From the NCBI GenBank assembly GCA_016218105.1, contig JACRET010000002.1, forward strand, positions 1 through 64,000: a DNA stretch of 64,000 nt, read 5' to 3'. The position numbers and the translations under genes were made by a program. The stretch is from Deltaproteobacteria bacterium. Its GTDB lineage: Bacteria; Desulfobacterota; GWC2-55-46. Positions 27,235 to 36,700 of the stretch are shown piece after piece; position 1 is the first letter of the stretch, and every line of letters starts with the position of its first letter. The notes under the pieces were generated by a model, which saw nothing but the letters and a program-made list of their open reading frames with translations, ran no database searches and was not told the origin of the DNA.

Positions 27235-29163
27235 TTGATCATACGGTCTATGGCAAAGATACAGTCAAAGAGCATTGAACCTGTTGACATATTTGAGGAT
27301 TATGGTTTTATTGCGGCCGTACTGCTTATACCGGTCATTTCTTTTGTAATCTACTCCAATACCTTCTCATCACCTTTCCAGTTCGACGATTACCTGTATG
27401 TGATCTCCTACAACAAGAATCACCCCTTGAGCAGCTTCTGGCCGCCTACGGGCTCAAGGTATTTCACCTATCTTACTTTCGCGCTCAACTACAGCTTCGG
27501 CGGGCTTGGCACCTTCGGGTACCACCTCGTCAACGTCCTGATACACAGTCTTAACGGGATAGGGGTATATCTCCTGGTTCGCGAGACATCCAAAACCCCT
27601 CTGCTTGAAGGTTCGGGGATTCCGGCTGGGAGCATCGCCCTGCTGTCATCCGTCATCTTCACGGCGCACCCGGTACAGACGGAGGCGATAACATACGTCA
27701 CTCAGAGGTTTGCCTCCCTGGCCACCTTGTTTTACATCTTTTCCCTGCTGGCGTTCATACGATGGAGGCGCTCGGCAGAAGGGGCGCCGAAGCGGATCTT
27801 ATTTTATGCCGCCGCGCTGGTTCTGGCCGTTATAGCTCAGAAGACAAAAGAGATAACGTTCACGCTCCCCTTTATGATGCTCTTTTTTGAACTCGTGTTT
27901 TTTAAGGGAGGGTCGATTGGAAAAAGGGTTCTCCGCCTCGTCCCTTTCCTGCTCACCTTGCTGATAATACCGCTTACGATGTACGGCCTTGACGCCTTTC
28001 TCTGGGGAGGGGAGGGGGCGATAGGCGATGAGGTGCGCAATCTTCAATTAAGAGACCTCCATAATATTTCGAGGCACGATTATCTTATAACACAGTTCAG
28101 GGTAGTCGTGACTTATCTAAGGCTCCTCGTCCTTCCCGTAAACCAGAACCTCGATTACGACTATCCGATGTTCCGGACTTTTTTTGATCCGGAGGTCGTC
28201 GCGTCGTTTGTTTTCCTTCTGCTCTTCTTCTCCCTGGGGTCATATCTGATATGGAGGGCTTTGAAAAAAAACGGCGGCTACGGCGCCCTCGCGGGGTTCG
28301 GCATAATCTGGTTCTTCGTCACGATATCGATAGAGTCTTCCATAATCCCCATAAAAGACATTATCTTCGAGCACAGGCTCTATCTCCCGAGCCCGGGGAT
28401 GGCGATAGCGTTCAGCTCTTTTGCCCTTTTTCTTGCGGGCCTGTTCAAGGCGCGCTTCGGGCTTAAGGCCTCCTCCTCTGCGGTTACGATAGCCCTCTTG
28501 CTGGTAACGGCCGCGCCGCTTGGGGCGGCGTCATACGTAAGGAACAAGGTTTGGGTGAACGAGATAAGATTGTTCGAGGATATCGTCAGGAAGAGCCCGA
28601 AAAAAGAACGTGTCAGGTACAACCTGGCGTGGGTATACCAGGTTAGAGGCAAGAAGGAAAAGGCGATCGAGCAGTACAAGGAAAGCATAAAGCTCGAGCC
28701 TAACAAGGACAAGTCGCACTACAATGCCGCGCTCATATACCAATCCATGAACGACAACGTTAACGCGATAGCTCATTTCAAGGAGGCGGTGAGGATAAGC
28801 CCGAAGAACGCCGTAGCTTACTACAACATGGCCGCGAGCTATGTTGAGATGGGGGATCGACCCGCGGCGATCGAATGCTACAAGGAGGCGATCCGCATAA
28901 ACCCCGGATATGAGGACGCGCAGTATAATATCGGTTGGATGTACAAAGAGGCGGGGGATCTGAAGAAGGCTGAAGCCCACTTCCTCGCCGCCTCGGCCTT
29001 AAATCCGGCAAACGCCGATGCCCGCTATAACCTGGGGCTTATATACAGGAAGCTTGGGATGAGGGACAGGGCGATCGATGAATTTGCCGCTGTGTTGCGG
29101 ATAGACCCGGCATACGCCGCGGCAGAAACCGAGCTGAATAAAATAAAGTCAAGGCCAAGATGA
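27235..29163 (+). CDS. TMTC-like GT-C membrane protein with C-terminal TPRs (paralog A)
   Basis: FQFDDYLYVISYN, TFGYHLVNVLIHSLNG, TAHPVQTEAITYVTQR, KTKEITFTLPFMMLFFELVF, EHRLYLPSPGMAIAF, then TPRs. Confidence 0.85.
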   Translation: MIIRSMAKIQSKSIEPVDIFEDYGFIAAVLLIPVISFVIYSNTFSSPFQFDDYLYVISYNKNHPLSSFWPPTGSRYFTYLTFALNYSFGGLGTFGYHLVNVLIHSLNGIGVYLLVRETSKTPLLEGSGIPAGSIALLSSVIFTAHPVQTEAITYVTQRFASLATLFYIFSLLAFIRWRRSAEGAPKRILFYAAALVLAVIAQKTKEITFTLPFMMLFFELVFFKGGSIGKRVLRLVPFLLTLLIIPLTMYGLDAFLWGGEGAIGDEVRNLQLRDLHNISRHDYLITQFRVVVTYLRLLVLPVNQNLDYDYPMFRTFFDPEVVASFVFLLLFFSLGSYLIWRALKKNGGYGALAGFGIIWFFVTISIESSIIPIKDIIFEHRLYLPSPGMAIAFSSFALFLAGLFKARFGLKASSSAVTIALLLVTAAPLGAASYVRNKVWVNEIRLFEDIVRKSPKKERVRYNLAWVYQVRGKKEKAIEQYKESIKLEPNKDKSHYNAALIYQSMNDNVNAIAHFKEAVRISPKNAVAYYNMAASYVEMGDRPAAIECYKEAIRINPGYEDAQYNIGWMYKEAGDLKKAEAHFLAASALNPANADARYNLGLIYRKLGMRDRAIDEFAAVLRIDPAYAAAETELNKIKSRPR

Positions 29164-34946: not shown

Positions 34947-36700
34947 AGATGTTGAAGGGTTTTAAATACAGACTGGCGTCGATTTTAATATTGGCCGCCG
35001 TTACTTTTGCCGTCTATTACGGCAGTCTCGGGAACGGTTTTGTCTATGACGACGCGGAGCAGGTACTGAGGAATAAGTGGATCACGGACATCCGGTATCT
35101 CCCCGCAATTTTTACGTCTCACACATTCGCTTTTGCCGAGGGGAGCTATCAGGCGATCTCATACCGCCCGCTCTTTATGGCGTTCTATATGCTGGAATAT
35201 TCCCTTTTCGGCCTGAACGCGTGGGGCTGGCACCTTGTAAATATCATCCTTCATGCCGTAAACGCGGTTCTTGTCTTTCTTGTCCTCTCACGCCTCCTTG
35301 GAAGGGAGAGGGAAGGCTTCGCGGCGTATCTGCCGGCGCTTGCGGGAGCGCTTATATTCGCTGCGCTCCCCGTAAACAGCGAAGTGGTCTCGTGGATCGG
35401 ATGCGTTCCGGAGCTCCTTTACACCTCGCTGGCCTTGAGCGCGTTTTATCTCTACATAGGGGCAGAGGGTTCTCAAGGGATTTTATCCAGACTCCTTCCG
35501 GCCCTGCTCTTCTTTTTAGCCGTATTCACGAAAGAGACCGCCGTCCTGCTGCCGGTATTCCTTTTTGCATACGATTCGGCAAAGGGAACCAAACCGTTTT
35601 TAAGCATGGGCAGGCTCATAAGATACCTGCCGTTCGTTATAGCGGGAGCCGTCTATATATGTTTAAAGATGGGCTTGCTGGGGCATGTGGCGGCGCCTGA
35701 AAAGCTCCATACGAACCTGAAAGGGACAGACTACCTTATAAACGCCTTTCCGCTCTTTACGGGGTATTTAAAGGCGTTGCTGTTGCCCATAAACGATTAT
35801 CCGCTCCAGCTCTTCAGGCCTGCGGCGTCATTTGCCGGCGTTGATGTTCTGGTATCTGTATCCATAATATCTGCCCTGGCGATAATCATCTTTCTTGCAA
35901 GAAAAAAGCTTGATCCTCTGTTCTTCCTCGGGCTTGCCTTTATCGTAATACCGCTCCTGCCCGCGCTTTACGCGCCCGCCATAAGCAGGACGCCTTTCGC
36001 GGACAGGTATCTATACTTCCCTTCGATCGGGCTTGGCCTTATAACCGCGCTCTCCTTCAGGAAGATCCTTTCAGCCAGAGGCGCTCTGATCCCCGCCCTC
36101 GTTCTATTGATATTCGCAACCGCTGTCTATTCCGTTTGGGCGCGCCAGAGGTCGTTTTTCTGGAAGGACGACCGGACGCTCTGGGCCAGGGCCCTCGAAG
36201 GGTCTTCCTCCAACTATCTTGCTCTCCATTCCATAGGTTACATGGATTTAAAAGAGGGGCGGACGGACGCGGCAGTGACGGGGTTAAGAGAAGCGCTTAG
36301 GTTAAACAACGGGAGCTACTATCCTGACCCGACCATGCTCCTCCTTACGAGAAAGGTGCTGGCAGCCGCTTATCACAGAAACGGTTTCCTTAAAGAGGCC
36401 GCCTCTGAATACAGCGAGGTTTTGAGGGTTGAGCCTGAGGACGCGGTCGCTGGTTTTAATCTCGGGACTATTTATGAGGGACAAGGGCATACTAACGACG
36501 CTATGGAACTTTATTCAAAAGCGATACTCTTCGCTAAAAATCCGGCCCTCTCGCGTGAAATACGCATAAGGCTTGGAGACAATTACTCGCGCATGGGCCA
36601 AAAGGCGGAAGCGGCGGCGAATTATGAGGAGGCCCTCAGGCTCTCGCCGGGTGACCCATCGTTAATAAACAGGCTAAAAGTCGTAGGTGGCGGAAATTGA
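34943..36700 (+). CDS. TMTC-like GT-C membrane protein with C-terminal TPRs (paralog E)
   Basis: GFVYDDAEQVLRNKW, ISYRPLFMA, GWHLVNIILHAVNA, LPVNSEVVSWIGCVPEL, KETAVLLPVFLFAYD, ADRYLYFPSIGLGL, then TPRs. Confidence 0.88.
   Translation: MKMLKGFKYRLASILILAAVTFAVYYGSLGNGFVYDDAEQVLRNKWITDIRYLPAIFTSHTFAFAEGSYQAISYRPLFMAFYMLEYSLFGLNAWGWHLVNIILHAVNAVLVFLVLSRLLGREREGFAAYLPALAGALIFAALPVNSEVVSWIGCVPELLYTSLALSAFYLYIGAEGSQGILSRLLPALLFFLAVFTKETAVLLPVFLFAYDSAKGTKPFLSMGRLIRYLPFVIAGAVYICLKMGLLGHVAAPEKLHTNLKGTDYLINAFPLFTGYLKALLLPINDYPLQLFRPAASFAGVDVLVSVSIISALAIIIFLARKKLDPLFFLGLAFIVIPLLPALYAPAISRTPFADRYLYFPSIGLGLITALSFRKILSARGALIPALVLLIFATAVYSVWARQRSFFWKDDRTLWARALEGSSSNYLALHSIGYMDLKEGRTDAAVTGLREALRLNNGSYYPDPTMLLLTRKVLAAAYHRNGFLKEAASEYSEVLRVEPEDAVAGFNLGTIYEGQGHTNDAMELYSKAILFAKNPALSREIRIRLGDNYSRMGQKAEAAANYEEALRLSPGDPSLINRLKVVGGGN

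What the first reader, a model, noticed from the sequence alone, without database searches (positions are those of the whole stretch)
27235..36700. Operon of five tandem TMTC-like GT-C/TPR proteins: candidate bacterial O-glycosylation system
Seen: five co-oriented multi-TM plus TPR ORFs with 4-bp overlaps or near-zero gaps (29160/29163, 30710/30712, 34943/34946). Each keeps a first-loop (V/Q)(Y/F)DD motif, H(L)(V/L)N, a (H/L)PvxxE loop, KE(x)2-3(I/T/V) and (L/A)YLPS-like motif before the TPRs; four also keep an SYRP/TYRP motif. Established: eukaryotic TMTC1-4 share this order (FVYDDxxAI, SYRPL, HLxN, HPxHTEAV, CKExGIT, ERVLYLPSMGF, TPRs) and are O-mannosyltransferases acting on cadherins. Inference: this is an expanded bacterial TMTC-like transferase set whose paralogs have different acceptor specificity.
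Basis: partly seen in the sequence, partly recalled or inferred. Interest (0 to 1): 0.82.

Follow-up and report, generated by a model that had tools for sequence, protein, structure and literature searches.

The report
Bacterial TMTC-like glycosyltransferase gene cassette
Five side-by-side bacterial genes encode membrane sugar-transferring enzymes built like the human TMTC protein-mannosylating enzymes, with a sixth gene (missed at first) that probably makes their lipid-linked sugar; the family is common in related bacteria, but this swappable cassette and its altered sugar-binding residues are a variant whose function nobody has tested.

Summary
The five co-oriented ORFs are real, at the stated coordinates, with the stated overlaps and motifs. 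All are GT-C membrane enzymes with C-terminal TPRs. A predicted structure of the most divergent one (ORF1) matches only GT-C enzymes in the PDB at probability 1.00 (AglB, Pmt, ArnT, STT3, ALG12). The GT-C modules align end to end with bacterial TMTC proteins (hhalign E 6e-108). None carries a detectable TMTC_DUF1736 domain, and the sugar/metal motifs differ: ORF2-5 lack the M3 Arg and M5 Asp; ORF1 lacks M2 YRP and the M3 acid. 'Mannose' is therefore unsupported and 'protein acceptor' untested. The family is common: 20 copies in this genome, 60 of 119 phylum genomes, and another five-gene array. New here: the array is a variable cassette (1-5 GT-Cs, interchangeable GT2) in one intergenic site that is empty in 13 relatives. 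Best reading: a periplasmic glycosylation module using a polyprenyl-phosphate monosaccharide, probably on proteins. Variant of a known kind.

The parts
27235..29163 (+). ORF1: GT-C membrane module plus about five TPRs; separate subfamily (type I: EHRLYLPS, HPVQTE..QRFAS, no YRP)
29160..30710 (+). ORF2: GT-C/TPR protein, type II (FVYDD, TYRP, HPVNSE, KEPAI, DRYLYLPS)
30712..32424 (+). ORF3: GT-C/TPR protein, type II; PMT_2 match above Pfam cut-off; AF2 pLDDT 92.3
32441..33184 (+).
33192..34946 (+). ORF4: GT-C/TPR protein, type II (SSYRP, HPAHSE, KETAIT, ERQAYLPS)
34943..36700 (+). ORF5: GT-C/TPR protein, type II (SYRP, LPVNSE, KETAV, DRYLYFPS); its clade is sister to that of ORF4
24324..27038 (-). 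Conserved 904-aa protein without Pfam match: left edge of the insertion site, divergent from the array
36814..37605 (+). HEAT-repeat protein: right edge of the insertion site; lies 200-540 bp from the 904-aa gene in relatives without the array

Best explanation
The six genes 27235-36700 form an accessory glycosylation cassette. The cytoplasmic GT2 probably charges a polyprenyl phosphate with one sugar. After flipping (no flippase in the cassette), five GT-C integral membrane enzymes use this lipid-linked monosaccharide on the periplasmic face. The first-loop Asp-Asp and the KE motif form the catalytic centre, and the C-terminal TPRs hold the acceptor, most likely exported polypeptides. The GT-Cs are relatives of TMTC proteins, but of two bacterial subfamilies lacking a recognisable DUF1736 loop. 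Their changed sugar- and metal-contact residues make a non-mannose donor or altered chemistry plausible. Shown: genes, fold (ORF1 by model; others by homology), motifs, synteny, variable copy number. Inferred: activity, donor, acceptor, one transcript.
For: ORF1 GT-C module: pLDDT 90.8; the top 21 PDB fold hits, all probability 1.00, are GT-C glycosyltransferases (AglB, Pmt4, STT3, ArnT, ALG12, Pmt1-Pmt2). ORF3: pLDDT 92.3, PMT_2 above cut-off. M1 Asp pair, M2 Arg and M4 Lys-Glu conserved in all five; these and the M7 Tyr are near-invariant across 100+ relatives. Profile match to PF08409-bearing bacterial TMTC-like proteins: probability 100, E 6e-108, 407 columns. GT2: Glycos_transf_2, best PDB hit dolichol monophosphate mannose synthase 5mlz, E 6e-21. 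A GT2 lies inside the array in 9 of the 11 syntenic arrays (window included) and within 1.5 kb of 5 of 12 GT-C/TPR loci of the genome (0.68 expected, P about 3e-4). Each of ORF1-5 has its own orthologs in sister genomes in the same order.
Against: No activity data. Donor sugar and acceptor unknown. ORF2-5 lack the M3 Arg and M5 Asp that in human TMTC models contact mannose and metal (PMC7801869). No cadherin domain in the genome. TPRs could bind partner enzymes rather than acceptors. The GT2 is missing from two of the multi-gene arrays. Membrane topology was not resolved (hydropathy gave 7-12 segments by ORF). The GT2 enrichment test ignores general clustering of glycan genes.
Confidence: 0.6

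Rival explanations
1. True bacterial TMTC orthologs: the five enzymes are O-mannosyltransferases using polyprenyl-phosphate mannose on beta-sandwich-like exported proteins.
For: Same motif order, GT-C fold and TPRs; DPM-synthase-like GT2 next door. Some databases name relatives 'protein O-mannosyl-transferase'.
Against: No TMTC_DUF1736 match in any of the five or anywhere in the genome, while other bacteria of the phylum do have it. M3 (RxD) and M5 (D) are broken in ORF2-5; M2 and the M3 acid in ORF1. PF08409 proteins form their own clade (100/99). No cadherin domains in the genome.
Confidence: 0.17
2. The enzymes modify a glycolipid or surface polysaccharide (LPS core, O-antigen or capsule side groups), like ArnT or GtrII-type enzymes, and the TPRs only assemble them with partner proteins.
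For: The GT-C fold is shared with ArnT. Orthologs of the GT2 elsewhere in the family sit in polysaccharide-type clusters beside a Wzx-like flippase, an epimerase and another GT2. A variable, swappable cassette is typical of surface glycan loci.
Against: The window cassette has no Wzx/Wzy or sugar-nucleotide genes near it. Every GT-C carries TPRs, and most of the GT-C fold hits are protein glycosyltransferases (STT3/AglB, PMT).
Confidence: 0.2
3. Some of the paralogs are catalytically inactive TPR scaffolds that keep the fold but not the activity.
For: Loss of the M5 Asp and M3 Arg in ORF2-5. A separate conserved gene, 37613-38419, keeps only the last TM and the TPRs.
Against: The first-loop Asp pair, the M2 Arg and the KE motif are invariant or nearly so in both subfamilies, which is hard to explain without catalysis.
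Confidence: 0.08

Closest known systems
TMTC1-4 (animal O-mannosyltransferases, GT-C/PMT clan, PF08409)
   Same: N-terminal GT-C module with first-loop DD, an Arg in the M2 loop, HxxN, HPxxxE, KE, [ED]R..Y[LF]PS, then TPRs; colinear by profile alignment with PF08409-type bacterial relatives
   Different: No detectable DUF1736 domain; M3 Arg and M5 Asp replaced in ORF2-5; M2 YRP and M3 acid missing in ORF1; five copies in an operon with a GT2
Bacterial TPR GT-C proteins annotated 'tetratricopeptide repeat protein' or 'protein O-mannosyl-transferase'
   Same: Same family: more than 1600 and 4700 homologs at E<=0.001 among 8000 scored candidates for ORF3 and ORF1; 60 of 119 phylum genomes
   Different: This locus is a cassette with conserved order and a dedicated GT2 inside
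PMT, STT3/AglB and ArnT (GT-C protein or lipid-A glycosyltransferases)
   Same: Fold and first-loop acidic active site
   Different: Sequence identity about 10-16 percent; TPRs in place of the MIR domain or the ArnT periplasmic domain (domain make-up of those enzymes from general knowledge)
Dolichol-phosphate mannose synthase / polyprenyl-phosphate glycosyltransferases (GT2)
   Same: 32441-33184 matches the solved archaeal-type DPMS 5mlz best (E 6e-21)
   Different: No C-terminal membrane segments predicted; sugar specificity unknown; far below NCBIfam equivalog cut-offs

Membership tests
GT-C superfamily | GT-C membrane fold | tested here: met
   ORF1 model: the 21 best PDB matches, all probability 1.00, are GT-C enzymes; ORF3 modelled at pLDDT 92.3 and homologous to ORF1
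GT-C superfamily | Acidic residues in first extracytoplasmic loop | tested here: met
   DD in all five and in 95-100 percent of relatives
TMTC | C-terminal TPR array | tested here: met
   Pfam TPR matches in all five
TMTC | PF08409 TMTC_DUF1736 loop | tested here: not met
   No match at E<=10 in any of the five GT-C modules, while the L101 and L103 positive controls match; none in the whole genome
TMTC | M2 SHKSYRP motif | tested here: inconclusive
   YRP in ORF2-5; only the Arg in ORF1
TMTC | M3 RxD motif | tested here: not met
   Arg missing in ORF2-5 (T/V), acid missing in ORF1
TMTC | M4 KE motif | tested here: met
   K and E in all five
TMTC | M5 Asp (metal) in the loop before TM8 | tested here: not met
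   Asp present in ORF1 only; L/L/F/L in ORF2-5
TMTC | M7 ERxxY before TM10 | tested here: inconclusive
   [ED]RxxY in ORF2-5; one-residue shift (EHRLY) in ORF1
TMTC | 11 TM segments with lumenal/periplasmic TPRs | tested here: inconclusive
   Hydropathy gives 7-12 segments depending on ORF; sidedness not tested
TMTC | O-mannosylation of cadherin-type domains | not testable with these tools
   No assay; no cadherin domain in the genome
Polyprenyl-phosphate sugar synthase (GT2) | GT2 fold family with closest relatives among DPMS/ArnC | tested here: met
   PF00535 E 2.7e-34; best PDB hit DPMS, then chondroitin synthase and ArnC-type enzymes
Polyprenyl-phosphate sugar synthase (GT2) | Transfers a sugar to polyprenyl phosphate | not testable with these tools
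   No assay

The most novel reading that the evidence does not exclude
A modular, variable bacterial protein-glycosylation cassette: several TMTC-like transferases with different acceptors share a cassette-encoded donor synthase for a sugar other than mannose, and swapping the GT2 changes the sugar placed on exported proteins.
Probability: 0.25. Interest if true: 0.68.

Novelty: new variant of a known kind. Interest (0 to 1): 0.45.

Why it matters
Bacterial relatives of the TMTC enzymes number in the thousands, but no functional study of one was found in the open-access library searched. A compact cassette carrying its own candidate donor synthase and five transferases, with natural 0-, 1-, 2-, 3-, 4- and 5-copy versions at one chromosomal site, makes donor and acceptor specificity directly testable. 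It could also show which parts of the TMTC design (DUF1736 loop, M3 and M5 motifs) determine the sugar.

Tried and rejected
Foldseek of full-length ORF3 listed only TPR-containing proteins in the 50 rows shown, so the GT-C part of ORF1 was modelled alone. Sequence search of the GT-C modules against the PDB found nothing meaningful. The search for related loci with ORF3 found no loci. The idea that 37613-38419 is a decayed sixth GT-C copy was rejected: it is a conserved separate gene beside the site in relatives with and without the array. The idea that the array belongs functionally to the neighbouring outer-membrane/cytochrome genes is weakened, because the outer-membrane and TPR genes stay when the array is absent. 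Promoter and terminator scans found no more sites than shuffled sequence. Plasmid collection: no match.

Full report
1. Observation. The five ORFs are present at the stated coordinates, with 4-bp overlaps at 29160/29163 and 34943/34946 and a 1-bp gap at 30710/30712. Each has a hydrophobic N-terminal module followed by TPRs. Alignment of the five gives invariant D51 D52, R75, H97, N100, P146, E150, K205 E206, Y383 P385 S386. The motif claims hold, with small exceptions (ORF5 LPVNSE and YFPS; ORF1 lacks YRP). The unit is therefore six genes: GT-C, GT-C, GT-C, GT2, GT-C, GT-C.

2. Organism. The genome holding the window is 2.87 Mb in 104 contigs. Close relatives include 'Deltaproteobacteria bacterium GWB2_55_19' (same genus) and 'GWC2_55_46' (same family), inferred from matching contig lengths of 55,853 and 2,590,723 bases.

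3. Fold and active site. AlphaFold2 gives ORF3 (full length) a mean pLDDT of 92.3 and the ORF1 GT-C module 90.8. Foldseek of the ORF1 module against the PDB returned 21 leading hits, all GT-C enzymes at probability 1.00: archaeal AglB, yeast and human STT3, Pmt4, Pmt1-Pmt2, ArnT and ALG12. ORF1 is the most divergent of the five, so the GT-C fold extends to the others by homology. The first-loop Asp pair, the M2-loop Arg, the HxxN motif and the KE motif are conserved in 87 to 100 percent of relatives in both subfamilies.

4. Comparison with TMTC. TMTC1-4 are described as GT-C/PMT-clan O-mannosyltransferases with seven motifs M1-M7 near the dolichyl-phosphate-mannose and metal sites, and homologues among prokaryotes are noted there (PMC7801869). 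Human TMTC sequences were not used here. The yardstick was bacterial proteins carrying PF08409, which keep the TMTC signature closely (HPIHTEAV..VGRAELL, ERLLYLPSLGF). Profile-profile alignment of the ORF3 family to these covers 407 columns at probability 100, E 6e-108. However, none of the five GT-C modules matches PF08409 even at E<=10, although two PF08409 proteins run as positive controls do, and the whole genome has no match. Motif by motif: M1 met in all; M2 Arg in all but YRP only in ORF2-5; M3 Arg lost in ORF2-5 and acid lost in ORF1; M4 KE met in all; M5 Asp present only in ORF1; M7 met, with D or E and a one-residue shift in ORF1. M2 and M3 are the motifs proposed to contact mannose, and M4 and M5 are proposed to bind metal, so transferring the mannose function is not justified. 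They work like TMTC enzymes in design; membership in TMTC proper is not met.

5. Family tree. A maximum-likelihood tree of 65 GT-C modules places PF08409 proteins in one clade (100/99). ORF1 falls in a separate clade with about nine other proteins of this genome. ORF2-5 and their counterparts at this locus form another clade, with ORF2/ORF3-type and ORF4/ORF5-type pairs. Each window ORF groups with its positional counterparts in sister genomes. The paralogs are therefore old and kept in order, not recent duplicates. The tree is unrooted and some branches are long.

6. The donor gene. The GT2 matches PF00535 (E 2.7e-34) and, among solved structures, dolichol monophosphate mannose synthase best (E 6e-21), then chondroitin synthase and the ArnC-type transferase. 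It is the most conserved gene of the cassette (73-74 percent identity within the genus, against 47-61 percent for the GT-Cs). In the whole genome, 5 of 12 GT-C/TPR loci have a GT2 within 1.5 kb (0.68 expected, P about 3e-4; general clustering of glycan genes is not controlled for). Elsewhere in the family its orthologs sit beside a Wzx-like flippase, an epimerase and further GT2s.

7. A variable cassette at a fixed site. In 12 of the 41 genomes examined (own genome plus 40 relatives) GT-C genes lie between the same neighbours: a 904-aa gene without Pfam match on the left and a HEAT-repeat gene on the right, followed by convergent TPR and outer-membrane protein genes (in G022 and G004 the site is cut by a contig end). 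Its content varies: one ORF1-type gene (G024), two GT-Cs (G005, G006), three (G010, G015, G019, G022), four (G001) or five (window, G002, G003, G004). The GT2 is the window type in the genus and in G006, a different GT2 of about 30 percent identity in G005, G010 and G019, and absent in G015, G022 and G024. In 13 further genomes (G007, G008, G009, G012, G013, G014, G016, G018, G020, G030, G034, G036, G038) the 904-aa and HEAT genes are adjacent, 200-540 bp apart, with no array: an empty site. In G001, ORF2 and ORF3 are fused into one chimeric gene with a clean switch of identity, which shows recombination between tandem copies. The array is accessory, not a fixed partner of its neighbours.

8. 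How ordinary is it? The genome has 20 GT-C/TPR proteins. Half of 119 sampled genomes of the phylum have at least one, several reach 11 to 14 matches (14 is the scoring cap of that search), and another five-gene tandem array is seen at G072:C1:2474814-2484055. More than 1600 and 4700 homologs of ORF3 and ORF1 were found among 8000 scored candidates each, mostly named 'tetratricopeptide repeat protein', some 'protein O-mannosyl-transferase'. The family is known by sequence and unstudied in function as far as the searched library shows.

9. Verdict. The best explanation is a periplasmic glycosyltransferase cassette fed by a polyprenyl-phosphate monosaccharide. Confidence: high for GT-C glycosyltransferases, moderate for the lipid donor from the neighbouring GT2, about even for a protein acceptor, low for mannose. 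The variable cassette and the changed sugar/metal motifs are the new points.

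Noticed in passing
window 24324-27038 (-): 904-aa protein with no Pfam or NCBIfam match, present in 37 of 41 own-and-related genomes searched; a conserved family of unknown function that borders the variable site.
   Followed up: partly
window 37613-38419 (-): TPR protein whose N-terminus looks like the last TM and linker of the GT-C/TPR proteins (R..W.....LW.D...KSP); conserved beside the HEAT gene whether or not the array is present.
   Followed up: partly
window 38454-50034 (-): Run of minus-strand genes: outer-membrane-type protein, two FGE-sulfatase-domain proteins (one with 2 CXXCH), spermidine-synthase-like membrane protein, cytochrome c, PpiC/SurA-like isomerase, two 4-CXXCH cytochromes, NHL propeller; possibly an extracellular electron-transfer cluster.
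   Followed up: partly
L072:6374-7999 (G001): Chimera of ORF2 (first about 250 residues) and ORF3 (rest), produced by recombination between tandem paralogs.
   Followed up: yes
L083:5953-7796 (G019): ORF1 counterpart is split into two overlapping frames: frameshift or assembly error.
   Followed up: no
G072:C1:2474814-2484055: Another tandem array of five GT-C/TPR genes in a distant genome of the same phylum.
   Followed up: no
window 22367-24237 (+): ThiI-like protein with an NFACT-R_2 domain overlapping a PP-loop ATPase gene, conserved beside the 904-aa gene in most relatives.
   Followed up: no
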